Notes under the pieces: model-generated | What the model was told of the DNA's origin: nothing | Database searches by the model: none | What the model saw: the letters and a program-made list of their open reading frames with translations, nothing else | Assembly: GCA_002716355.1 (NCBI GenBank) | Contig: PBAU01000014.1 | Location: 1-14,724 of the forward strand | Origin: a bacterium | GTDB taxonomy: Bacteria > UBP7 > UBA6624 | Direction of reading: 5' to 3' | DNA length: 14,724 nucleotides | Shown here: one piece after another, positions 2 through 14,629 of the stretch | Layout: each line of letters starts with the position of its first letter | How positions within the stretch are numbered: the first letter of the stretch is position 1 | Position numbers and translations under genes: made by a program

Positions 2-1045
2 CAAAGCCAGAAGCTCATCCTCATATTTTGAATTAAAATTTTGAGCTTTAATCAAATTTTTAATAGATTCACTATCTGAGCTTTTCTTACTAAGCGATGG
101 ATGTTTATATATGCATAGCAGGATAAAAATAGGAAGATACTCATCATTTTTAATTAAAGAATAGTTGTTTACTATGTCATTAAAAGTAATAGCGTTCTTA
201 TCTAATTTTACAATATCTTCCTTGAAATTAGTAAAATCAAAACCATGGACACCTTTTTCACCAGAATAATTCAAAACTTTATCAATGTATTGATGTATTA
301 ACATTTTATTAGACTTTATACAAGATGATATTTCATTTTCATATAAAGGTGTAGATAATAATAAAAATGTCTTCCAAATAACTGAGTATTCTTTATTAAA
401 AAGCATATAGTTTATATATTTTTTATTACTTAAAGTAAAAAATAATTGAATTTGCCACGGAATACTAACATTGGGTTCAACAAAAACTTTTTCATGATTA
501 AATTCATTTAGATATTCTTTATAAAATGAACTAAGACTTGATATATGTAAACGACTAAATAAAGAAGATGTTTTAAGGTAAGACATGCCTCCCATTAATT
601 TAAAATAAAATCTTAGCTTAATATTTATTTCTTTATTAAGTCTAGATTTTTCAACATCATAATCAATATTAATCACTCTGTCAATTTCATCAATAATTTT
701 TATTTTTTGAACTAATAAATCAGTGTTAATCTCAACATCCCTAATATGAGGTGTATAAGTTTCTTTTTTTTCTTTATCTAAGCAATATATTGATTTTATA
801 ATATTTACAGGAAGAATTCTATGATACTTGAGTTTTTTTATTTTAACTAAATCAAGTTCTAATAATATATGACTATCATCAAAAAATATCTTTTCAGAAG
901 TCAATGGAATATGATGACACATTTTATCATTAATATATTCAAATCTATCAGGAAATAAAGAATTCATTGATTCAGTGGAATAGATAATTCCATCATTTAA
1001 ATATTTAGTTAACAATCTATGTGATATTGATAAATAGTTGATCAT
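2..1045 (-). CDS. Unrecognised protein, last visible gene of the DISARM-like operon, C-terminus cut by window edge
   Basis: An uninterrupted frame of 348 codons begins at an ATG whose first base is 1045, three bases after the stop of the upstream SF1 helicase gene, and runs off the left edge without a stop. The product starts MINYLSISHRLL and is rich in Lys, Ile, Asn, Phe and Tyr. I see no Walker motif, no HxK phospholipase-D motif, no PD-(D/E)xK signature, no Cys clusters and no membrane segment. It looks like a soluble, mostly helical protein. In class 2 DISARM the gene of unknown function is drmE; this position in the operon makes a DrmE-like or accessory role possible, but I cannot recognise that family here. 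The tight spacing argues that it is co-translated with the operon and belongs to the system. Function unknown. Confidence 0.8.
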   Translation of the reverse strand, partial: MINYLSISHRLLTKYLNDGIIYSTESMNSLFPDRFEYINDKMCHHIPLTSEKIFFDDSHILLELDLVKIKKLKYHRILPVNIIKSIYCLDKEKKETYTPHIRDVEINTDLLVQKIKIIDEIDRVINIDYDVEKSRLNKEINIKLRFYFKLMGGMSYLKTSSLFSRLHISSLSSFYKEYLNEFNHEKVFVEPNVSIPWQIQLFFTLSNKKYINYMLFNKEYSVIWKTFLLLSTPLYENEISSCIKSNKMLIHQYIDKVLNYSGEKGVHGFDFTNFKEDIVKLDKNAITFNDIVNNYSLIKNDEYLPIFILLCIYKHPSLSKKSSDSESIKNLIKAQNFNSKYEDELLAL

Positions 1046-1048
1046 TTT

Positions 1049-2194
1049 CTAAAAAACATCATAAAGATTTGTATCTTGAATATATTCAGCTATTAAAGGC
1101 ATTTGCCCATTAGATGAAATTATTTCCAAGTTAAATTTAGCTCTAGTACATGCTACATATAATTCCTTTAGCTTTAATCGACCAGCATTTTCTAATCTAT
1201 CGATATATGGGATAATAACTGTTTGAAATTCCAACCCTTTTGCACTTTGCTTTGTGCATATTAAGATATTTTCCATTTCACCATTAAACATCATATTTTC
1301 AAGAACTGTATCATTCATTTTATGATGATAATAGGAGGAATTAACTCCTCGATCTGTTAAATATGAATTAATTTCTCTCACTTGTGAAATAGTATCGCAT
1401 AAAATTCCAACATTAACTTCTAGATTATTTTGTGTAATTACATAAATTTGTTGTAATAACTCAGTTCTATTATTCCTAAGATAAATGCGAGGCTTATCTT
1501 CGCCAGGGACCTTAAAGTCTTGTATTATACCGGGATTTACTTCTAATCCAATAACAAAATTTTTCGCAAATTTATATATTGCTTCAGTATTTCTATAATT
1601 ATTTTGTAAGGTTAAAATATTACAGTTTACACCTTGATCCTCTAATGATTCCATCATATTTGATACAGGGCTCTCATTGTCAAAATTTCCCCTTATATCC
1701 TGTGCATCATCACAGCATATTATAATTTGATTGGATATCATATTAAGATGCTGTACAAAGTTAGGCCATAAATCTTGAGACTCATCAATTACAATTTTAT
1801 CATGAAATCTTTCGTTTGCATATTCAGTAAATTTATCTATCAAAATATCTTCTCTTACTGTTCTATAATCATTTTCTAGTAAAAATGTCCCAAATGTGGA
1901 ATAATACCATTTCATAACTGTTACAATTGAATGTGAATTGAAGTTATCTAAATGCTCATTATTTGCAAAGCAATTTATTAAATAACAACGTAATAGTTTT
2001 GCGTATGCCATATATAAACAATTCTCATTACGTTCATAAGCATCAAGAACTTTAAAATTAGCTACGGTTGTTTTTCCACTTCCAGGACATCCTGTAATAA
2101 TAAGTGCATGATTTTCAGAATCGGGGTAATCTATTACAGCATGTTGCTGAGTATCTAAAACATCTCTAGGCGGTTGAGTAAATTCAAATGGCAT
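1049..2194 (-). CDS. UvrD/Rep-like superfamily 1 ATPase/helicase without nuclease domain (381 aa)
   Basis: This is a predicted ATP-dependent DNA helicase or translocase of superfamily 1. Visible motifs in order are Walker A GCPGSGKT (residues 35-42), Walker B IVIDESQD (134-141), a motif III-like CCDDAQD (160-166), NYRNT (199-203), motif V AKGLEFQTVIIP (318-329) and motif VI ELYVACTRAK (344-353). At 381 residues it is about half the length of UvrD or Rep and lacks the large 1B/2B insertions, so it resembles the compact helicase half of NERD-linked proteins. It starts two bases after the drmB stop and is followed three bases later by the next gene. It has the same motif order as the C-terminal part of the NERD-helicase encoded at 7389-9077 but no nuclease domain. 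Its role in the defence system is inferred only from operon membership. The family call is strong; the substrate is unknown. Confidence 0.88.
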   Translation of the reverse strand: MPFEFTQPPRDVLDTQQHAVIDYPDSENHALIITGCPGSGKTTVANFKVLDAYERNENCLYMAYAKLLRCYLINCFANNEHLDNFNSHSIVTVMKWYYSTFGTFLLENDYRTVREDILIDKFTEYANERFHDKIVIDESQDLWPNFVQHLNMISNQIIICCDDAQDIRGNFDNESPVSNMMESLEDQGVNCNILTLQNNYRNTEAIYKFAKNFVIGLEVNPGIIQDFKVPGEDKPRIYLRNNRTELLQQIYVITQNNLEVNVGILCDTISQVREINSYLTDRGVNSSYYHHKMNDTVLENMMFNGEMENILICTKQSAKGLEFQTVIIPYIDRLENAGRLKLKELYVACTRAKFNLEIISSNGQMPLIAEYIQDTNLYDVF

Positions 2195-2196
2195 TT

Positions 2197-4038
2197 TTAC
2201 AAAACCTCTTTAAAATAATTTTCATAATTACTGTTATATGTTTTTGTAATAGTTGATCTATCTAAATATTTATTAAAATGCGAACAACTTGTCTCTGAAA
2301 TTATTAAACAATTATGACATGCTGCAAGATTTGCTTTTTGTGGACCTTGATGGCCAATTGAAGAACAAACAGGGTCACCAGAGCACCAAGATGTTTTTTG
2401 TATTATATTTCTCATAATTCGTTCAAAATTTCCAGGCTTTCCTAATCTAACTAACCCTCCTAACGAGCCCTCCGAATCGCCATCAGAAGTATAAATTAAA
2501 ATTCCTGCCATATGCGATCTGCCTTCTGTATTTGCATAAATTCTTTCTTTAATAGAAGAACTATTATAGCCACATTCTAAGCTTAATTCTTTTATCAATA
2601 AATGAGCGAAACTATGCAATAACACAAAAGTTGTTTCTGATTCATAGTCTAAATTATCTTGTGGATTTTGATTTATTTTATACCCATTCAAAGATGAATC
2701 CTTACGCCATTTATCTAAAGTATCTAAATTGAAATTCAAAAATATGCCCTCTCCCCTTACAATGATAGCTGGAATTTCATTCATATCACCATTAATTGAA
2801 TTAATTTTTTCACTATCATTATTATCAAAATTCTTAGGATAAGGAAGTATTCGCCTAAAACCACAAAAAGCTTTTGTTTCTCTCATTTTTTCAAGTAAAG
2901 ATATTTTGTCAAAATATGTTTCGACCCAACTTTCGTAATCATCTAATGATTGGATTTTAACCTCATAATCTTTATCGCCTGGGATTCCTGGAACTTTATT
3001 AAAAGTTGTATATTCATTAAATTTAATATCTTCCATATCATTTATTGTAACAGCTGCCCTAGTTCTTTCATATTCGTGATATTGCATAATTAATTCTGGT
3101 GTAGTATCATACATTGCAGGATCAATTATATACTTTAAAGCTTGTATATGAATAGTTTCAGTATTTTCAAAAAATCTTCGTTCTTTAAGAATTTTATACT
3201 GCTCAATAGTATCGTTACTAAACCCACTTCCATCTTTAGGAATCCATATTGCAGACCTATTGATGGCATAATAAAAATTAGAGGCTCCCTTCTGGATACC
3301 TTGAATTTTATATTCAGGATAATTTTGATTACATTCTTCTACAGTACTTTCAAGATTGTCTTCGAATAACCAATGTCTATAACCCTTACAAGTATAATTT
3401 ATGTTACCCAGCCTATCTGGTAATAAAGCCTCTCCCATATTTTTTTGCTTATTACATGTAATACACTTAATCATAATCCCTGAAGTAGAGCTGTCATTTC
3501 CATAAGTATTATATTCAAGCTGATGTAGATCTTCATTAATGCCATCATGAACATGTTCAGTAAAATGATAATCATCTACATGACCATTAGTACAAACTAA
3601 TAGAAATCTAACAGGTATTAATGATGATTGTGTCCCAATTCTATCTTTACAATTTTTTTGCTGCTTATTTCTACATTGCGGAATATATTGATCGCAATCA
3701 ACTTTATGCATAGCTCTACATTTTATATTTGTACAATAATGCCATCGAGGAAATCTAATAGTTCTAACAAAAGTATTTGAAGGTTTCCAAATTCTATTTC
3801 CATATTGATATGTCCATGACCCATTATCATTAGGTGGAGAAATAAACTTATTTACTCCTAATAAATTTTTTAGATTTTCTTCATCATTAAGTTGCTTTGT
3901 TTCAAGGTTATTTTCTATTCTCCAGCGCTTATTTGCTAAAATAAGCAAAGATTCATTTAAATCCGTGGTTATAACAGAGCCAATGGCAAATGTATTAATA
4001 AGCTGAGATTTTCTTATTTTATTATTATTTCTAGCCAT
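2197..4038 (-). CDS. drmB: DISARM protein DrmB, DUF1998 domain (613 aa)
   Basis: DrmB is a core component of the DISARM anti-phage system and acts together with the helicase DrmA. The N-terminus has the family opening RKSQLINTFAIGSV (residues 9-22). A Cys-rich region follows (C102, C107, C115, C122, C130, then C192 and C195), suggesting zinc binding. The C-terminal DUF1998 part shows LLHSFAHLLIKELSLECGY (473-491), SDGDSEGSLGGLVRLG (518-533) and a last Cys cluster (C552, C558, C574, C577, C585) that includes CHNC. The length is typical of DrmB. The ATG overlaps the drmA stop by 8 bases (ATGGCTAG), implying translational coupling and probably matched amounts of the two partners. In published DISARM structural work (recalled, not checked) DrmA and DrmB form the DNA-binding complex. 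No truncation is seen. Confidence 0.94.
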   Translation of the reverse strand: MARNNNKIRKSQLINTFAIGSVITTDLNESLLILANKRWRIENNLETKQLNDEENLKNLLGVNKFISPPNDNGSWTYQYGNRIWKPSNTFVRTIRFPRWHYCTNIKCRAMHKVDCDQYIPQCRNKQQKNCKDRIGTQSSLIPVRFLLVCTNGHVDDYHFTEHVHDGINEDLHQLEYNTYGNDSSTSGIMIKCITCNKQKNMGEALLPDRLGNINYTCKGYRHWLFEDNLESTVEECNQNYPEYKIQGIQKGASNFYYAINRSAIWIPKDGSGFSNDTIEQYKILKERRFFENTETIHIQALKYIIDPAMYDTTPELIMQYHEYERTRAAVTINDMEDIKFNEYTTFNKVPGIPGDKDYEVKIQSLDDYESWVETYFDKISLLEKMRETKAFCGFRRILPYPKNFDNNDSEKINSINGDMNEIPAIIVRGEGIFLNFNLDTLDKWRKDSSLNGYKINQNPQDNLDYESETTFVLLHSFAHLLIKELSLECGYNSSSIKERIYANTEGRSHMAGILIYTSDGDSEGSLGGLVRLGKPGNFERIMRNIIQKTSWCSGDPVCSSIGHQGPQKANLAACHNCLIISETSCSHFNKYLDRSTITKTYNSNYENYFKEVL

Positions 4039-7000
4039 CTTCTTCTAAGCCTGTAATAAATAATGGTGTTTCTTTGTCTACATTTCTCATAGAACTTGGC
4101 ACAAAAAACGGAGTTTTTACCCATCTAGGATTAGGTTCTCTTCCATAATTAATAAATAATGGAGGCCTATTAGTATTATCTTGCCATGAATGAAAACGAA
4201 TTCTATTTAATCTTCTCCACTTATCTAATACTCTTTTCAATTCTTTTTTAGCTGACTCCAACTCTTTTTTATCTATAAATTTAATCCTTTCTTCTAAAAA
4301 TAATTCAAATTTCCTAATTATTTGTTCATTTGACCTTACTTGTACAGCATGTTCATCATTTCTATATTCTTGATCTATATGGTTACGCAAAAATCCAATT
4401 AGTATAGCTTCAATAGCTCTATCTCTAACTCTAACAGAAAAAGGTGTAAGGCTCATTGGTTCAACATGGGTATAAATTTTAGAATGATATGATTTAAAAT
4501 TTTCATAATGAGACATATCTCGTGCTCTTGACGTATTATATAAAGTAAATACTATTCCTGGCTTATCAGCGCTTCTTCCAACACGACTTGTTGCTTGTAT
4601 GTATTCAGCAGTTGACTTAGGCTGACAAACACAACACATTAAAGATAATCTTTGAATATCAAGCCCAACTGATATCATATTAGTTGCCAGACACGCATCA
4701 ATATATCCTTTCTTTCCAAGATTTGACATAATTTTTGGTATTTCATAATCTTGTTTCCTGCTTGTTAATTCCTCAATATTGTTAACATAACGTCTATGAT
4801 CAGCATCTAGGTCTAGTTTAGAGTATAATTTTCTTAATCTTAATGATTTTACATCATCTTCAATCATAGTTTTAGCATGTCCTAATTCTTTAAGTGATGA
4901 GTAATAGCATAATAACGTATGATAAGAATCTTGTAAATCTTTATTGTCTTCATCAAACATTTTAGAAGCTTGCAATAGAATTGAATACAATCTTATCTGA
5001 GTTGTTGAAAATGAAGGCGAACTATTTGCATAAACACCAATATACTTTCTCCCAACAGCCTTATTTTCTAATTTAGAAAAAAATGAATCGTCATGACTGA
5101 TTCCTGGAGGAGGGAATATTTTAATATGCTCATCTTTCTTTGCATATAAATTTCTAATTTGTTCTTTGGCCATCGCTATTGTTGCAGTTGAAGCAATAAT
5201 TTTAACTTTTTGTTCATTTCTCATTAGTTCTTGAATAACACCTTCATAGTGACCAACCATTGAGCCAAGTGGACCAGATATTAAATGTAGCTCATCTTGT
5301 ATTATAAGTGAAGGAGGGTTATGATTTCCAATATCCGGCACATCAATTCCAAATAATTTTCTAATCTTTGTTTGATGAGGTAATTGTGCAAATTTATCTA
5401 CTGTTGCAATAACCATTGTTGGTGGTTTATTGTATAAATCCTCATCGACAACGTATACAGGAAAATCACTATTTGAATATTCGCAGTTTCCATAACATTT
5501 AAATTTTGATATACCTTCATTATTTATATAAATACCTTTAGCCCTATCTTGTACTCTTCTATTACTATAGACAGGTCCTAATTCTTTACCACAATTTGGA
5601 CATTTTAAAAGTAAAAATTTATAATGCTGGCTATATCCAGTGTTATTCAAATTTTCTATCAAACTTATAGCTTTATCATTTTTATTAGGAGTCAAAGATT
5701 CTCCAACATATACACCTATAGATATTTCATCTTCACCTAACAACTCTAAATTATCTTTTCTCAATTTTTCGCAACTCATAACCAACGCACATGCTCTTTC
5801 AAATTGTTGAGCTGTTAATAATCTTAATGTATATCGCATTATAATTTCAGTTGCAGCTGGCCTATTAAATGCTAATTCATTATAAAATATTGTAAATGCA
5901 GATAAACCTAAATATGCCTCTGTCTTACCACCTCCAGTGGGGAACCAAATTAAATCTACTATTTCTCTATCATTAGATTCTGGATTTGTCATTGACTTCA
6001 CGTTCATTAATATAAAGGCTAATTGAAACAATCTCCATTTTCCAAATCGAGATTTTTGATTATCTTTATTATAATCTGGCCATGTAGTAATATCATTAAG
6101 GACAGGCAAAATATTATCTTCAATTGTATCATTTGTGATGCTTTCAGATAAGCTCCATTTCTTAAGAGGCAAACTATATCGTAACTGCTGATCAAGCATG
6201 GCGTGATTCATAAATTGAAATGCAATCAAAGCATTGCTATCAGACTTCAGGATATTAATCCCCTCTTCTATTCTAGATACGCATATTTTACAATTATCTA
6301 GATTCACTTTTGCCTGATTTTTATTATATTTATTTGAAAAAGTTTCTTTACTTTTATTATTTATCCATTGACTATATGCAGAAGGTATTTCATTGATTAA
6401 TTTGAAGCTTATTTCATTTTCCCATCCATTTGTTGATAGCTTGTACATCTCTAAATCATTATTATCAATATTAAAATGTAATAATGGTTTTATTTCATGC
6501 TCTGGAATGAAGTTTGATTTAATATAAGTAACAGATCCATTATTATTTTTATCCCAATCTACAGCACAAGAATGACCCGTAGCATATGTTTTAATATCTC
6601 TGTACAAAAGATTATTTAGATTATTATCCCAGCTATCATGAATGATAGGTTCTGGATATTCCTGAAATGAAGATTTTGATTTATTTTTTATAGAGAGTTC
6701 TACTTGATAATAACAATCATTATATCTAGGAATTTTAGGTGTATTATTCTCTTTTTTATTTAAAATAGATAATGATAAAAGAACTTGGTTCTTGTAGTCA
6801 AAATATTGATTTCGAACAGTTCTGTTAATTAAGATGACTTCTAAGTCATGATCTTTTAATTTAAATATTTTTTCTTCGTTAAAATGTAGAGGTATATCAT
6901 CTTTTAATTTAAATTGATGATGATGCTGGATTCGGCTATAAGCAACACTTCCTTTGTGAACTTTATTTTCACAATTTTTACATTTTTGAGAATTGTCAAT

Positions 7001-7399
7001 ATTTATTATATGTTCTTTTTTCAATTCATGGCGGCATGTTATGCACCATCGAATTCTTTGATATGTTGCAAAACTGATATCTATAATATAATCTATATCG
7101 TTTCTAAGTGATAAAAAGCTAAAACCAAATGAAGACTTTGATGTATTAGTGAAAGATAAACCCTCATCTGATACTCCTTCAATATTGTTGTTTCCACTTA
7201 CATTAATAGTAGAATTATCATCAGTAATATCATCTTCATAATTTCCTGCTGATACTCTTTGAGGTTCAAGAATACCTGATATAAACTGCTGAAAAGGACC
7301 TTCTTCACCAATAAGCAATCGACCCTTAACTTGATCATCATCCGACAAAGATGGACCAACAAGATCAAGTCTAACTTCCTTTATAATTTTATCGCGCAT
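4031..7399 (-). CDS. drmA: DISARM protein DrmA, SF2 helicase (1122 aa)
   Basis: DrmA is the large helicase of DISARM, thought to bind and move along incoming DNA in complex with DrmB. Motifs seen are Walker A FPTGGGKTE (residues 486-494), motif Ia TLRLLTAQQ (524-532), a DEAD-box variant DELH (702-705), motif III ASTAT (736-740), ATNMISVGLDI (905-915) and motif VI QATSRVGRS (935-943). The family-typical stretch HVEPMSLTPFSVRVRDRA follows at 978-995. Two possible zinc-binding sites are present: C119/C122 with C140/C143 near the N-terminus, and C600/C603 with C635/C639 between the helicase lobes. The ATG overlaps the stop of the NERD-helicase gene by 11 bases and has only a weak Shine-Dalgarno, so coupled translation is likely. 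Length and motifs look intact. Confidence 0.95.
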   Translation of the reverse strand: MRDKIIKEVRLDLVGPSLSDDDQVKGRLLIGEEGPFQQFISGILEPQRVSAGNYEDDITDDNSTINVSGNNNIEGVSDEGLSFTNTSKSSFGFSFLSLRNDIDYIIDISFATYQRIRWCITCRHELKKEHIINIDNSQKCKNCENKVHKGSVAYSRIQHHHQFKLKDDIPLHFNEEKIFKLKDHDLEVILINRTVRNQYFDYKNQVLLSLSILNKKENNTPKIPRYNDCYYQVELSIKNKSKSSFQEYPEPIIHDSWDNNLNNLLYRDIKTYATGHSCAVDWDKNNNGSVTYIKSNFIPEHEIKPLLHFNIDNNDLEMYKLSTNGWENEISFKLINEIPSAYSQWINNKSKETFSNKYNKNQAKVNLDNCKICVSRIEEGINILKSDSNALIAFQFMNHAMLDQQLRYSLPLKKWSLSESITNDTIEDNILPVLNDITTWPDYNKDNQKSRFGKWRLFQLAFILMNVKSMTNPESNDREIVDLIWFPTGGGKTEAYLGLSAFTIFYNELAFNRPAATEIIMRYTLRLLTAQQFERACALVMSCEKLRKDNLELLGEDEISIGVYVGESLTPNKNDKAISLIENLNNTGYSQHYKFLLLKCPNCGKELGPVYSNRRVQDRAKGIYINNEGISKFKCYGNCEYSNSDFPVYVVDEDLYNKPPTMVIATVDKFAQLPHQTKIRKLFGIDVPDIGNHNPPSLIIQDELHLISGPLGSMVGHYEGVIQELMRNEQKVKIIASTATIAMAKEQIRNLYAKKDEHIKIFPPPGISHDDSFFSKLENKAVGRKYIGVYANSSPSFSTTQIRLYSILLQASKMFDEDNKDLQDSYHTLLCYYSSLKELGHAKTMIEDDVKSLRLRKLYSKLDLDADHRRYVNNIEELTSRKQDYEIPKIMSNLGKKGYIDACLATNMISVGLDIQRLSLMCCVCQPKSTAEYIQATSRVGRSADKPGIVFTLYNTSRARDMSHYENFKSYHSKIYTHVEPMSLTPFSVRVRDRAIEAILIGFLRNHIDQEYRNDEHAVQVRSNEQIIRKFELFLEERIKFIDKKELESAKKELKRVLDKWRRLNRIRFHSWQDNTNRPPLFINYGREPNPRWVKTPFFVPSSMRNVDKETPLFITGLEEDG

Positions 7400-9077
7400 A
7401 ATGTTCTTTAAATCCGTTCATATTATCGTTTTTGTTGAATATGTAAAGTTTATATATAGCTCTTGATAATGCAACATATAAACGATTCAAATATAAATGT
7501 TTTTGCGGATAATCATATAATATAATAATATTATTTTCTAATCCTTTAAAATTTTCAATAGATGAATATCCAACACCAGTTCTGTTTATAAAAAAGCCAG
7601 GGTTCTTATTTAAATTGCAAATTTGTCTATTAATTTTAAAATCTTGATGTTCATAAGGAAAGTCAGATAAAATAGTTATATTATATTCTTTATGACCTAT
7701 TTCTGAAATTTGCCTATCAATTATTTCTTTTAATTTATTGTTCTTATCAATCTTATCATGATACGCTATAAGCTCAGGTAATTCACCTTTAATATTATTG
7801 CTTTTTACTAAATTTTTAAATTTAGTTCTTTTCTTTAAATAATCATTAATCTCTTGTGTATTTCTACAGTTTATATCAAGACAGTAAAATGTATAATTTA
7901 TTTTATTAAACAAAATTTCAAATTCAGCCGCCTCCTTTTCTGTCTGTTGGTTGTCTATATCTCCAAAAAATGACCAAGACCCTCTTCTGTTGAAATCTTT
8001 TTTAAGTATAACTTCAAATAAATTAATTAAATCTTCTATTCTTAATAAATCTTGAAATTCATCAACAACTAAATAATCATAATTATTATCAATATTCTTA
8101 AGAAGATAATCAGCATCAGAAACAGTTTCATTTTCTTTCTTTTGATTTAAGATTCCTCTGATAGAAATAATTTCATTTTCTTGTATTTCAATTTGTTTTG
8201 AAATTATATTTTTAATATAAAGTGCAAGTAGCTCTGAATAACAGATGAATAATACTCTTTTACCTTCTTCTTTAGCCCTTATATAGCTTTCAATCGCCAT
8301 TATTGTTTTTCCAGATCCAGCTGACCCCTTAACTAATAAATTGTTATCAAATAGATTGTTTAAAATACTGATTTGCAAGTTTGTTAAATCATTTAATTCA
8401 TTTTTAATAACTGCAGGATTTAACTCAGTTCTATTTACATGTTTTTTTGATTTACGCTGTCTTAATTTATTGTAAGTTGATTTGATTTCCTTATTGTTCA
8501 TTTCTGAAAATATAATATTAGGGTATCTTTTAGCATGAAATTTTTTATTAGCATTAACTTTATTTTTCACTTTTTCAACAAAAGCATCTACAGTCATATC
8601 CAATGATAGAATAATAGAATCTTTATTGAATTCTTTATGTTCAAATGTTAAAGTTTCAGGAAAAACTACAAGCCAATTAAAAAAATAATTATCTGACTCA
8701 TTAATCATGCATCTAAGCGACTCTTTATTTGATTTTATCTGGTCGAAAGGACTATCAATTTTTTTCCAATTATCGTATTTTCTGTCTTTATTGAAAAATA
8801 TTTGATCTTCATATTTTACAATTGAACTTTTTACTTCTAGACATATAAAACCAAGTTTTTTATCAACAATTAAGAAGTCTATATCACTTCCCTCTGGTTT
8901 ATCTTTATGTTTGTTTTCCGGTATTTGATAAGAGTATAGTATATACCATTCTTCTGTTCTTATAATTTTTTTCAGCAGATGATATACTAATTCTTCACCT
9001 CTACTCTTATATCCACCATAGTGAAAAAAAGTTTTTGAATTCAATTTATCTGGACTTGGAGAAATGCTTCCTTTCAT
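7389..9077 (-). CDS. NERD nuclease domain fused to SF1 helicase (562 aa)
   Basis: The protein has two parts. Residues about 20-150 form a NERD-type PD-(D/E)xK nuclease domain: RGEELVYHLL (26-35), SDIDFLIV (64-71) and ICLEVKSS (78-85) supply candidate catalytic residues D67, E81 and K83. Residues about 225-562 form a UvrD-like helicase: Walker A GSAGSGKT (251-258), Walker B VVDEFQD (337-343), a GD motif (372-373), NCRNT (403-407), the motif V-like SIENFKGLENNIIIL and a motif VI-like LYVALSRA near the C-terminus. A linked nuclease and helicase suggests processive DNA degradation or end processing. The ATG overlaps the restriction endonuclease stop as ATGA, and the gene's end overlaps drmA by 11 bases. 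Classical class 2 DISARM carries a phospholipase-D protein (DrmC) that is not seen here, so this could fill that slot; that is inference. Confidence 0.9.
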   Translation of the reverse strand: MKGSISPSPDKLNSKTFFHYGGYKSRGEELVYHLLKKIIRTEEWYILYSYQIPENKHKDKPEGSDIDFLIVDKKLGFICLEVKSSIVKYEDQIFFNKDRKYDNWKKIDSPFDQIKSNKESLRCMINESDNYFFNWLVVFPETLTFEHKEFNKDSIILSLDMTVDAFVEKVKNKVNANKKFHAKRYPNIIFSEMNNKEIKSTYNKLRQRKSKKHVNRTELNPAVIKNELNDLTNLQISILNNLFDNNLLVKGSAGSGKTIMAIESYIRAKEEGKRVLFICYSELLALYIKNIISKQIEIQENEIISIRGILNQKKENETVSDADYLLKNIDNNYDYLVVDEFQDLLRIEDLINLFEVILKKDFNRRGSWSFFGDIDNQQTEKEAAEFEILFNKINYTFYCLDINCRNTQEINDYLKKRTKFKNLVKSNNIKGELPELIAYHDKIDKNNKLKEIIDRQISEIGHKEYNITILSDFPYEHQDFKINRQICNLNKNPGFFINRTGVGYSSIENFKGLENNIIILYDYPQKHLYLNRLYVALSRAIYKLYIFNKNDNMNGFKEHYAR

Positions 9078-9664
9078 AATATTTGAATTTCTCCATCATC
9101 AACTATAAAAGAAACTGGTTTCCTGAGACCAATAATTATTAATGGCACTGTTAATTGATTCATTAATATTGGTAAATACCTTAATGCTTTTTCATATGAA
9201 CCTACAGCTGAATCAAAGCCACCTATTTTCTTCATTTCCTCTGTAGCAAAAATGACCATTCCTATTCTAGTTTGGATATCTTTATCTATATGATTTAATT
9301 CACCAGATAGTACAGGCTTCAATAGATTCCAAGATATAGCTTCACCATGATTAAATGCAACTTCAATAGAAAAATTATTTTTAGCAAAGTCTAATCTGAA
9401 GCGCTTATTTGAATATTCCTTATCTTGAAAAATTGGAGATTCGCTATGCCATCCTAATTCTGATAAACGTTTTTTAATTAATTGATTTATACATCTTGAA
9501 ATACTTCTATTATTATGATATTGAGGTTTAGAAAATTCTTTGATTATATTCTCATCTGAAATATTATCTAAAACTGATAATACTTGTTCATAATCATCAA
9601 TATACTTATCATTATTTTTAGATATTTCAATAGCATGTCTATGTGAATGCAAATTATATTTCAT
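9074..9664 (-). CDS. BglII/BstYI-like type II restriction endonuclease (196 aa)
   Basis: This is probably a DNA endonuclease with a PD-(D/E)xK fold of the BglII/BstYI type. The core is residues 88-115: RFRLDF with D92, then SIEVAFNH with E101. The spacing D-x8-E equals that of BglII D84 and E93 as I recall it. A BglII-like continuation follows: LLKPVLSGELNH (114-125), IGMVIFATEEM (134-144), and VPLIIIGL (173-180), matching BglII's VPIRLVGL. The length is close to that family's. One oddity is that the third active-site position, Gln95 in BglII, is Ala103 here. A nearby polar residue such as N105 may substitute, or activity may be altered. The gene overlaps the methyltransferase gene upstream by 11 bases (ATGAAATATAA), the close pairing expected of a restriction-modification pair. 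The cognate site cannot be read from the sequence. The family call is from memory of the BglII sequence. Confidence 0.75.
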   Translation of the reverse strand: MKYNLHSHRHAIEISKNNDKYIDDYEQVLSVLDNISDENIIKEFSKPQYHNNRSISRCINQLIKKRLSELGWHSESPIFQDKEYSNKRFRLDFAKNNFSIEVAFNHGEAISWNLLKPVLSGELNHIDKDIQTRIGMVIFATEEMKKIGGFDSAVGSYEKALRYLPILMNQLTVPLIIIGLRKPVSFIVDDGEIQIL

Positions 9665-11000
9665 TTTTAATCCTTTTTTCTAATTCATTACCAATTTTTT
9701 CAACAACTCCAACAACTAGCGCATTCCCCATAAGAAATGCTCTTTTACTAGCTAAGATATCGCCATTTATACCCTTTTGAGTAAAGTTATCTGGAAACAT
9801 ATTCAGTCGTTCTAGCTCCAATGGAGTCAATCTTCGATATTTGCCTTTATTTAATATTAGATGCTTGGTTCTCGATGGAGATTTTCCCCCCTCACCTGTT
9901 ATAATTGTTCGTGAAGGTTTATTTAAATCATCTGTTAAACTCATCGAACCTTCTGAAAAAGTATATGTAAAACCAGTTTTTTTATCTTTTCTAATTTTCT
10001 TTTTGGCTCCCTTATGAAACGCCCAACCTTTTTCTTTATTTTCAGCAACCACCTTATCAACAAAGAAGTCTTCATGTACATCTTTATTTGAAATAATAAT
10101 ATCTTTTAATTTTGTTCTTTTGCCAGTATAGATAGAAGAAACTTTTGTACTTATAAATTTTCTATTAATCATTATACCTGAATTATTAAATGGTGATTTA
10201 TTATTTTTAATATTTTTATTAAAGTTTTTTGTTAATTTTTCAAGGGTTCCATTAATTTCAGATTTATGATACATTATTTGACTTTCTGATTCACAAGGAA
10301 AGCTTTTTGCTAAAATGCCAGAGTCATTAATCCATGTTTTTTCATTTTTTTTCATTTCCTTGTAAAGATTGGTTGATTTATGATATGCTAGAAAAAATAC
10401 TCTTCTTCTTCTTTGAGGCATACCATAATCAGCAGCATTGATTATCCTCCACTCTACTCCATATCCTAAATCTGATAATGAAGCTAACATTATAGCGAAA
10501 TCACGACCTCTTTGCGATGCAGGAGATTTTAATAAGCGATCTACATTTTCTAAAAGTAAGTATTTAGGTTTTTTGCTTTTCTTTTCCCTTAAAATCTTTT
10601 CAATATTCCACCAAAGTACACCTTTTTTACCTTTTAGACCACCAGCAAGTTTCAAAGTATTAGCTACAGAATAATCCTGGCAAGGAAATCCACCAACCAA
10701 CATATCATGATCAGGAATATCCTTTGTTTTCACTGTATTGATATCTTCGTTACAATGATTATTTTCTCCAAATTTATATACATAAACATCTGATGCGTGT
10801 TGCTGAGTTTTTGTAATAGGTTCCCATTGGTTGCTCCATACTATCTCAAAATTATATTTTTCAAGACCTAATCTAAAACCCCCAACTCCAGCAAATAATT
10901 CTACAACTTTTATTTTATTATTACTTTTCATTTTTTCAAAATATTTTTCCATACATTTGCAGTACATTATGACATCTTTACAATCAGGGCATATTTTCAT
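9654..11000 (-). CDS. C5-cytosine DNA methyltransferase, DISARM/R-M type (448 aa)
   Basis: The enzyme transfers a methyl group from S-adenosylmethionine to carbon 5 of cytosine in a specific DNA site. Motif I VVELFAGVGGFRLGL is at residues 32-46, the catalytic motif IV GFPCQDYS at 104-111 (nucleophile C107), motif VI LLENVDRLL at 149-157 and motif VIII PQRRRRVFFLAY at 195-206. Motif IX RRLTPLELERLNMFP lies near the C-terminus, followed by motif X GNALV. A target-recognition region containing PSRTIITGEGGKSPSRTKH sits before motif IX. An N-terminal CPDC(x7)CKC segment (residues 4-16) may bind a metal. It is the first gene of the seven-gene operon and sits in the place of the class 2 DISARM cytosine methylase (DrmMII). 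The adjacent endonuclease gene also fits a type II pair. The start ATG at 11000 has an AAAGG Shine-Dalgarno about 8 bases upstream. Confidence 0.93.
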   Translation of the reverse strand: MKICPDCKDVIMYCKCMEKYFEKMKSNNKIKVVELFAGVGGFRLGLEKYNFEIVWSNQWEPITKTQQHASDVYVYKFGENNHCNEDINTVKTKDIPDHDMLVGGFPCQDYSVANTLKLAGGLKGKKGVLWWNIEKILREKKSKKPKYLLLENVDRLLKSPASQRGRDFAIMLASLSDLGYGVEWRIINAADYGMPQRRRRVFFLAYHKSTNLYKEMKKNEKTWINDSGILAKSFPCESESQIMYHKSEINGTLEKLTKNFNKNIKNNKSPFNNSGIMINRKFISTKVSSIYTGKRTKLKDIIISNKDVHEDFFVDKVVAENKEKGWAFHKGAKKKIRKDKKTGFTYTFSEGSMSLTDDLNKPSRTIITGEGGKSPSRTKHLILNKGKYRRLTPLELERLNMFPDNFTQKGINGDILASKRAFLMGNALVVGVVEKIGNELEKRIKNEI

Positions 11001-13387: not shown

Positions 13388-14629
13388 TTAAGAGTGTTCT
13401 TTGTCGGGGATTGATGTTATAGCATCATCAGTGGTAGTTGAATCAATCAACTCAACATCTTTTAATTTTCTTCCAATAGCTCTCGTTCTTGTTCCTTGAA
13501 GATTTTCAAGTGATGTAGATGCAGTTTTTAGTTGAGTTTGGACTTTAGAAAGATGTGATTCAAATTTCGAGAACTCTGATTTAACGCCGGCTAATATATT
13601 CCAGACCTCGCTGCTTCGCTCTTGAACTAAAAGAGTTCTAAATCCCATCTGAAGACTATTTAATAAAGCTGATAATGTTGTTGGTCCTGTTAATGCAATC
13701 TTATGCTTTTGACGTAATGTTTCCATAATACCAGGCTCACGCAATACTTCTGCAAACAATCCCTCTATTGGAAGAAACATAATAGCAAAATCGGTCGTAT
13801 TTGGCACAGAAATATATTTGGTTGATATATCCTTAGCAAAGCCATCAATTGCCCTTATAAGCTGCTTTCTTGCTGAATCCACACCATCCTTATCTGCTGA
13901 CTCATAAGCGTTAAGCAATACTTCATAACTTTCAGTTGGAAACTTAGAATCAATTGGAAGCCATAATACGCTATCAGTATCCTTGCCAGGCATTTTTACG
14001 GCGTATTCTACAGAACCATTATAATCTGGATTTGTTGCAACATTATTTCCATATTGATCAGGTGTTAAGATTTGTTCTAAAATATTACCTAATTGGTATT
14101 CTCCAAATACACCTTTTGTTTTAACATTTGATAAAACTTTTTTTAGGTCCCCCACTCCTGTTGCAATTGTTTGCATTTCACCTAGACCTTTGTGAACTTC
14201 TTCTAGCCTTTCACTTACAAGTTTAAAAGATTCACCTATTCTCTTTTCTAGTGTTTTTTGAAGTTTCTCATCAACAGTTTCTCGCATTTTATCAAGCTGT
14301 TTAGTATTATCATTTCGAATATCTTTCAACTGATTATTTACAGTTTCTCTTATATCCTTGATATTTTTACCAAATTTCTCTTCGAATTGATTTAATGTTT
14401 TTGTGAGCTCCTGTCTATTATCTAAAGATGTTTTATTTAATTCAGAACGATTACGTTCAAGCTGATCATAAATCATTTTCTCATTTTTATCCAAAGAATT
14501 CTGAAATTTTAGAATAGATTCATTTATTGAACCGAACCCTTCATTACTAGAAGTTGTTTTATTTTGGAAAGAAAAATAAAGATTTACTAATGAAACAATG
14601 ATAGCTATTGATATTAAAATTTCGAGCAT
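13388..14629 (-). CDS. rmuC: RmuC family DNA recombination protein (413 aa)
   Basis: RmuC proteins are membrane-tethered, predicted nuclease-like proteins; in E. coli, loss of RmuC raises inversion between short inverted repeats. An N-terminal hydrophobic helix (residues about 3-21, LEILISIAIIVSLVNLYFSF) would anchor it. A long Lys/Glu/Asn-rich coiled coil follows (about 30-160). The RmuC domain comprises KGVFGEYQLGNILEQILTPDQY, the block VLWLPIDSKFPTESYEVLL, DISTKYISVPNTTDFAIMFLPIEGLFAEVL, and then ALTGPTTLSALLNSLQMGFRTL. These blocks are family hallmarks, and the length is slightly below that of E. coli RmuC (475 residues). No strong Shine-Dalgarno precedes the ATG at 14629. It stands as a separate gene with the next unit's promoter after its stop. 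It could be a chromosomal gene bordering the island, or part of it, since RmuC homologues also occur on mobile elements. Confidence 0.9.
   Translation of the reverse strand: MLEILISIAIIVSLVNLYFSFQNKTTSSNEGFGSINESILKFQNSLDKNEKMIYDQLERNRSELNKTSLDNRQELTKTLNQFEEKFGKNIKDIRETVNNQLKDIRNDNTKQLDKMRETVDEKLQKTLEKRIGESFKLVSERLEEVHKGLGEMQTIATGVGDLKKVLSNVKTKGVFGEYQLGNILEQILTPDQYGNNVATNPDYNGSVEYAVKMPGKDTDSVLWLPIDSKFPTESYEVLLNAYESADKDGVDSARKQLIRAIDGFAKDISTKYISVPNTTDFAIMFLPIEGLFAEVLREPGIMETLRQKHKIALTGPTTLSALLNSLQMGFRTLLVQERSSEVWNILAGVKSEFSKFESHLSKVQTQLKTASTSLENLQGTRTRAIGRKLKDVELIDSTTTDDAITSIPDKEHS

What the first reader, a model, noticed from the sequence alone, without database searches (positions are those of the whole stretch)
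2..11000. DISARM variant with extra nucleases and no visible DrmC
DrmA and DrmB are unmistakable by motif and are in one operon with a C5 methyltransferase, the class 2 DISARM core. The gene set differs from the described class 1 (DrmD, adenine methylase, DrmA, DrmB, DrmC) and class 2 (DrmE, DrmA, DrmB, DrmC, C5 methylase). The phospholipase-D protein DrmC is not seen. Instead a BglII-like endonuclease and a NERD-helicase lie between methylase and DrmA, and an SF1 ATPase plus an unknown protein follow DrmB. This may be a separate DISARM subtype in which dedicated nucleases do the cutting. Caveat: drmC or drmE could lie just beyond the left edge.
Basis: partly seen in the sequence, partly recalled or inferred. 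Interest (0 to 1): 0.8.

Follow-up and report, generated by a model that had tools for sequence, protein, structure and literature searches.

The report
DISARM operon built from three modules
A seven-gene anti-virus operon joins the DISARM DNA-sensing pair and a nuclease-helicase to an ordinary restriction-modification pair on one side and a probable ADP-ribosylation pair on the other; that last partnership appears not to have been described for DISARM.

Summary
In detail: seven abutting minus-strand genes run C5 methylase, BglII-like nuclease, NERD-SF1 helicase, DrmA, DrmB, SF1 ATPase, and an ORF cut by the contig end. The single-subtype reading needs correction: the operon is three modules.

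(1) Methylase plus BglII is a portable Type II R-M pair. The nuclease is 46-51% identical to plasmid BglII/BstYI enzymes; the methylase groups 100/100 with R-M methylases, apart from DISARM-adjacent ones. No other DISARM locus here has the nuclease.

(2) NERD-helicase-DrmA-DrmB is a widespread DISARM form. NERD is in 43 of 83 DrmA loci, never with DrmC, usually after DrmE. The window's DrmA belongs to that clade, yet DrmE is absent from the assembly.

(3) ATPase and last ORF look like a "two-component" ATPase/ADP-ribosyltransferase pair. The ATPase groups (99/98) with two ATPases followed by true Pfam 2CompART genes; 2CompART is Pfam's only, sub-threshold, hit in the last ORF (E 0.016).

A separate DISARM clade across at least four phyla also carries a related ATPase plus ART-like protein after DrmB, so DrmAB joined such pairs at least twice: perhaps an ADP-ribosylating branch of DISARM. 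Function is untested; drmC beyond the contig end cannot be fully excluded.

The parts
9654..11000 (-). C5-cytosine DNA methyltransferase of a Type II R-M pair (448 aa), first gene of the operon
   Evidence: PF00145 8e-70, PADLOC MTase_II 3e-157 against 1.5e-42 for DrmMII; groups 100/100 with R-M methylases
9074..9664 (-). BglII/BstYI-family restriction endonuclease (196 aa); 11-base overlap with the methylase
   Evidence: PF09195 3e-9; 46-51% identical over the alignment to four plasmid enzymes, D92-x8-E101 conserved
7389..9077 (-). NERD nuclease-SF1 helicase fusion (562 aa)
   Evidence: PADLOC RTasNERD-Hel 1.6e-33; homologues next to DrmAB in 43 of 83 loci
4031..7399 (-). DrmA, YprA-family SF2 helicase (1122 aa)
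   Evidence: PADLOC DrmA 677 bits; NCBIfam DISARM_DrmAS 862 bits; tree
2197..4038 (-). DrmB, DUF1998/MZB protein (613 aa)
   Evidence: NCBIfam DrmB_fam 408 bits, cut-off 240; MZB 3.7e-10
1049..2194 (-). Short SF1 (UvrD/HelD-like) ATPase without NERD domain (381 aa)
   Evidence: UvrD_C 8.7e-9; groups 99/98 with ATPases L199 and L209 that precede 2CompART genes
2..1045 (-). Cut ORF (348 aa visible) with a probable N-terminal ADP-ribosyltransferase-like domain at residues 3-97; possibly followed by an ADP-ribose glycohydrolase-like domain (by eye only)
   Evidence: Only Pfam hit is 2CompART E 0.016, sub-threshold; first non-member among 1152 proteins with an ART profile built without it, E 3e-4; follows the ATPase as true 2CompART genes do

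Best explanation
A composite defence operon of three modules, probably transcribed together from upstream of the methylase. (1) A Type II R-M pair marks self DNA and cuts unmarked DNA at one short site. (2) DrmA-DrmB, as in characterised DISARM, loads on unprotected DNA ends or 5' overhangs and translocates; the NERD-SF1 helicase supplies the nuclease that other DISARMs may take from DrmC. (3) An SF1 ATPase, coupled to the DNA-bound complex or to aberrant nucleic acid, controls a DarT-like ADP-ribosyltransferase that modifies viral nucleic acid or a host target as a second or last-resort response. Shown here by sequence: gene content, order, intact catalytic motifs in the nucleases and ATPases, module boundaries by phylogeny, and recurrence elsewhere. 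Inferred: co-transcription, division of labour, the ART activity of the last ORF, and its target.
For: Gene identities and abutting order. R-M pair homologues on plasmids without DISARM, conserved active-site residues, methylase tree. NERD next to DrmAB in 43 of 83 loci, 0 with DrmC; DrmC in 11 of 40 NERD-less loci. DrmA clade of DrmE-NERD-DrmA-DrmB systems holds the window at 100/99. NERD-DrmA-DrmB-ATPase-ART-like order also in Deinococcus, Actinomycetota and a Bacteroidota-group genome, without BglII. Window ATPase clusters with partners of true 2CompART genes. ART profile hit. DrmAB mechanism from PMC9142583.
Against: The last ORF's ART assignment is weak: Pfam is sub-threshold, no blastp support, and neither the two-sequence 2CompART profile nor the DISARM-only profile finds it alone. 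Its 3' end is missing. AlphaFold models were unusable. Abutment may reflect stacking of independent systems in a defence island rather than cooperation. The window is the only example found with this exact seven-gene set. Promoter-like matches are not evidence here.
Confidence: 0.6

Rival explanations
1. Defence-island stacking: a complete R-M system, a NERD-type DISARM that has lost DrmE, and an independent ATPase-ART system sit side by side by chance of insertion and act separately.
For: Each module occurs alone elsewhere: R-M on plasmids, NERD-DrmA-DrmB with DrmE, ATPase-2CompART without DISARM. The window ATPase is not sister to the DISARM ATPases.
Against: Gene ends overlap or are 2-3 bases apart throughout. 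An ATPase plus ART-like gene sits directly after DrmB in a whole separate DISARM clade, which chance stacking does not predict.
Confidence: 0.27
2. One integrated DISARM subtype in which BglII and NERD are dedicated nucleases that replace DrmC.
For: Both nucleases lie between methylase and DrmA with overlapping ends; NERD and DrmC are mutually exclusive in the survey.
Against: BglII is found in no other DISARM locus surveyed and, with its methylase, is close to stand-alone R-M systems.
Confidence: 0.08
3. An ordinary class 2 DISARM with DrmC (and DrmE) just beyond the contig end.
For: The contig ends inside the last ORF and the genome is 86.6% complete.
Against: No DrmC or DrmE within 7-13 kb of the ends of the other 15 contigs; no DrmE in the assembly; no NERD locus with DrmC among 43.
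Confidence: 0.05

Closest known systems
DISARM class 2 (DrmE, DrmA, DrmB, DrmC, C5 methylase)
   Same: DrmA and DrmB as separate adjacent genes; a C5 methylase in the operon; DrmA falls within a DrmE-associated clade
   Different: No DrmE and no DrmC seen; NERD-helicase present; methylase is of the R-M kind; ATPase and ART-like gene added
DrmE-NERD-DrmA-DrmB loci (e.g. L010, L012, L014, L042, L076)
   Same: Same DrmA clade and same NERD-DrmA-DrmB order
   Different: Window lacks DrmE and has methylase/BglII upstream and ATPase/ART downstream
DrmA-DrmB-ATPase-ART-like DISARM clade (Deinococcus gobiensis plasmid P4, Photobacterium plasmids, Pimelobacter, L154, L197)
   Same: SF1 ATPase directly after DrmB, followed by an ART-like protein; several also have NERD before DrmA
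   Different: Different DrmA clade (100/99) and different ATPase lineage; no BglII pair
Two-component ATPase / ADP-ribosyltransferase system (Pfam 2CompART, 2CompARG)
   Same: Short SF1 ATPase followed at once by the ART-type gene; ATPases group 99/98
   Different: The window ORF scores below Pfam's cut-off and the reference systems are not next to DrmAB
BglII/BstYI-family Type II restriction-modification
   Same: 46-51% identical nuclease with conserved D...E; related C5 methylase
   Different: Known examples here are stand-alone on plasmids, with the methylase divergent where it is annotated; here the pair is co-directional at the head of a DISARM operon
ARMADA type II (YprA helicase with GajB-like helicase)
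   Same: YprA-family helicase next to a GajB/UvrD-like helicase
   Different: No BrxHII-like helicase or PglX-like methylase; the DUF1998 part is a separate gene (DrmB)

Membership tests
DISARM (core) | DrmA helicase and DrmB DUF1998 protein encoded by separate adjacent genes | tested here: met
DISARM class 2 | DrmE | tested here: not met
   no match in the assembled genome; assembly is 86.6% complete
DISARM class 2 | DrmC phospholipase-D nuclease | tested here: inconclusive
   none in the window or near other contig ends, but the contig ends inside the last ORF
DISARM class 2 | C5 methylase of the DrmMII kind | tested here: not met
   a C5 methylase is present but groups with R-M methylases
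DISARM class 1 | DrmD SNF2 helicase and adenine methylase DrmMI | tested here: not met
   no such hit in any operon gene
NERD-type DISARM (as delimited here) | NERD-SF1 helicase beside DrmA-DrmB, no DrmC | tested here: met
Type II R-M (BglII/BstYI family) | BglII-fold nuclease with active-site D...E plus a methylase of the partner kind adjacent | tested here: met
   site specificity and activity not tested
Two-component ATPase/ART (2CompART) | SF1 ATPase of the 2CompART-partner lineage followed by the ART gene position | tested here: met
Two-component ATPase/ART (2CompART) | 2CompART domain above Pfam cut-off | tested here: not met
   15.9 bits against a cut-off of 27; supported only by a wider profile
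Two-component ATPase/ART (2CompART) | 2CompARG domain | tested here: inconclusive
   no profile match in the assembly; only a short motif resembles it by eye and the ORF is truncated
ARMADA | BrxHII-like helicase, PglX-like methylase, DUF1998 fused to the YprA helicase | tested here: not met
   definition from PMC12458937
Any of the above | anti-phage activity | not testable with these tools
   needs experiment

The most novel reading that the evidence does not exclude
DISARM has an ADP-ribosylating branch: DrmAB, with a NERD nuclease-helicase in place of DrmC, senses invading DNA and through a small SF1 ATPase licenses an ADP-ribosyltransferase effector. The pairing of DrmAB with an ATPase-ART unit arose at least twice, once in a multi-phylum DISARM clade and once, from a different ATPase lineage, in this operon.
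Probability: 0.35. Interest if true: 0.78.

Novelty: new variant of a known kind. Interest (0 to 1): 0.6.

Why it matters
DrmC is reported to be non-essential and not to co-purify with DrmAB (PMC9142583), so the source of cutting in DISARM is open. A nuclease-helicase that never occurs with DrmC in the survey is a direct, testable candidate. The repeated coupling of DrmAB to an ATPase plus an ADP-ribosyltransferase-like protein would add a second effector chemistry to a system thought of as restriction-like, and would show how DISARM, R-M and ADP-ribosylation systems exchange modules.

Tried and rejected
Extension past the left edge: impossible, the window is a whole contig; searches at the other contig ends found no overlap and no DrmC or DrmE. 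First idea that the last ORF is, over its whole length, the same family as the last gene of the Photobacterium/Deinococcus loci: not supported by whole-protein profiles, so the claim is limited to the N-terminal domain. Direct blastp of the last ORF with a true 2CompART protein: nothing significant. Split tests of the ART profile link the DISARM-clade proteins with true 2CompART proteins but do not find the window ORF. Structure prediction of the last ORF and of L080's last protein: pLDDT 38 and 34, so no fold search was made. Viral-contig scans with the window's DrmA or last ORF as single queries found nothing. Host identification: no SSU rRNA in the genome. ARMADA, Druantia, Dpd and TALON were considered and set aside because DrmA and DrmB are separate genes and the partner genes do not match.

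Full report
WHAT IS THERE. The window is the whole of contig C14 of a 1.26-Mb, 86.6%-complete assembly. Seven minus-strand genes follow one another with overlaps or gaps of a few bases: C5 methylase 9654-11000, BglII-like nuclease 9074-9664, NERD-SF1 helicase 7389-9077, DrmA 4031-7399, DrmB 2197-4038, short SF1 ATPase 1049-2194, and an ORF 2-1045 cut by the contig end. Family searches confirm each identity except the last. The catalytic signatures read directly from the sequence are intact: NERD D-I-D...E-V-K, Walker A and B of the NERD-helicase, of DrmA and of the ATPase, and D92-x8-E101 of the BglII-like enzyme, which is invariant in five aligned relatives. The G+C of the seven genes (0.23-0.30) is below that of the other contigs' ends (0.35).

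MODULE 1, AN R-M PAIR. The nuclease is 46-51% identical to BglII/BstYI-family enzymes on four Bacillota plasmids. In Psychrobacillus a C5 methylase lies near it, 42% identical to the window's. In a tree of 58 methylases, most of them beside DISARM loci, the window's methylase joins only the Psychrobacillus R-M methylase and a second, separate methylase of Planomicrobium L047 (100/100, long stem). No BglII homologue occurs in any other DISARM locus examined. The methylase and BglII are therefore a Type II R-M pair placed at the head of the operon, not a DISARM methylase plus a DISARM nuclease.

MODULE 2, NERD-DrmA-DrmB. An alignment of DrmA from the window, Deinococcus, two Photobacterium and a Streptomyces plasmid was used to fetch the 80 best-scoring DrmA loci of GTDB genomes and 18 of viral contigs. 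Profiles were then run over all ORFs. Among 83 loci with enough flank, 43 have a NERD-helicase and none of these has DrmC; 11 of the 40 others have DrmC (Fisher p 1.4e-4, not corrected for kinship). The sample leans toward window-like DrmA, so the frequencies are not those of DISARM at large. In most cases the order is DrmE, NERD, DrmA, DrmB; in others NERD follows DrmB, the place of DrmC. The ~880-aa upstream protein is DrmE (Pfam DrmE_C, NCBIfam DrmE_fam 175 bits). In many loci DrmE is split into two genes whose products match its N- and C-terminal parts. The window's DrmA lies in this DrmE-NERD clade (100/99), with a marine alphaproteobacterial locus, DrmE-NERD-DrmA-DrmB, as a possible sister on a long branch (92/85). 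DrmE itself is absent from the window's assembly.

MODULE 3, ATPase AND LAST ORF. A related ATPase follows DrmB directly in a separate DrmA clade (100/99, 15 rows) from Deinococcus, Photobacterium plasmids, Actinomycetota, a rhodobacteral genome, genomes of the Bacteroidota group and a viral contig, so at least four phyla. In nine or more of these loci the next gene encodes a 417-595-aa protein, most with a recognisably shared N-terminal region. In samples of 296-395 genomes of the Bacteroidota group, Pfam 2CompART (a "2-component system ADP-ribosyltransferase domain") was found in two, and in both it lies immediately after such an ATPase with no DrmAB gene found around it; one of the two proteins also carries 2CompARG, an ADP-ribose glycohydrolase domain. 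The window's ATPase groups with these two ATPases (99/98), not with the DISARM-clade ATPases.

HOW SURE IS THE ART ASSIGNMENT. 2CompART is the only Pfam hit in the window ORF (E 0.016, below cut-off), and it is also the only hit in two of the DISARM-clade last proteins (E 0.014 and 0.017). A profile of the ART regions built without the window ORF ranks that ORF first among 2001 sequences including 2000 shuffles (E 6e-4), and first after the profile's own members among 1152 real proteins (E 3e-4; next 0.14), over residues 3-97. Against this, smaller profiles do not find it, direct blastp does not, and AlphaFold models failed. I put the ART assignment of the window ORF at about 0.7. A glycohydrolase-like second domain is suggested only by eye (a GG motif about 150 residues in, as in the relatives) and a profile search did not find it.

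MECHANISM. In characterised DISARM, DrmAB is autoinhibited, loads on DNA with a 5' overhang, and needs ATP hydrolysis for protection; DrmC is dispensable and does not co-purify (PMC9142583). The most economical reading is that the NERD-helicase does the cutting in DrmC-less systems, that the R-M pair gives independent site-specific restriction, and that the ATPase gates an ADP-ribosyltransferase as a further effector. The first part is supported by distribution, the second by homology, the third by gene order, ATPase phylogeny and weak domain evidence. None was tested for activity.

COMPARISON AND NOVELTY. The recent YprA-family survey (PMC12458937) describes DISARM as typically with DrmC and, in the parts read, names a NERD nuclease only in TALON. 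Searches of the open literature for DISARM with NERD or with ADP-ribosylation found no description, but the original DISARM paper was not held and most subscription papers are missing from the library. The finding is a new variant of a known kind: DISARM with a NERD nuclease-helicase, coupled to an ATPase-ART unit, with an R-M pair attached.

Noticed in passing
window 13388-14629 (minus): A protein recognised by eye as RmuC-like (413 aa) lies upstream; RmuC domains are listed as a DISARM accessory and in the Shield system, but this may be a housekeeping gene. It was not searched against a family library.
   Followed up: no
L020-L025, L027, L028, L033-L036, L038, L055, L069, L070, L091: DrmE is split into two adjacent genes (~330 aa and ~520 aa) upstream of DrmA-DrmB, mostly with NERD between; the halves match the N- and C-terminal parts of DrmE by profile.
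   Followed up: partly
L043 14700-18074: The ATPase that follows DrmB is fused to sigma-70 regions 2, 3 and 4; in Streptomyces L006 a 1273-aa sigma-70-like protein lies just upstream of DrmA.
   Followed up: partly
L049, L050, L062, L065, L066, L068, L071, L077-L079, L084, L086, L087: In many Actinomycetota a ~1570-aa protein (TmtA-like N-terminus with a helicase C-terminus in L050) and a ~610-aa GajB-like helicase precede DrmA-DrmB, apparently another DISARM form without DrmC or DrmE.
   Followed up: partly
L198 6067-11064: DrmA and DrmB appear fused into one 1665-aa protein, followed by the ATPase and ART-like gene.
   Followed up: no
L197, reverse strand, after the ART-like gene: A complete NERD-DrmA-DrmB-ATPase-ART-like operon is followed directly by a Vsr-like gene, a C5 methylase and two genes that read as McrB- and McrC-like.
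   Followed up: no
L146, L147: Very divergent DrmA-DrmB pairs on viral contigs with NERD-helicase homologues both before and after them.
   Followed up: no
L047 15819-21617: A DrmC-type DISARM in Planomicrobium has its own methylase and, about 3 kb away, a second methylase closely related to the window's R-M methylase.
   Followed up: partly
L201, L202, L203, L204: The same short SF1 ATPase family pairs with other partners outside DISARM: next to DUF1848-like, Hsp70-like or protein-kinase-like genes.
   Followed up: no
contigs C2, C3, C5-C11 of G000: Many contig ends of the host assembly consist of short tandem repeats, which probably broke the assembly.
   Followed up: no
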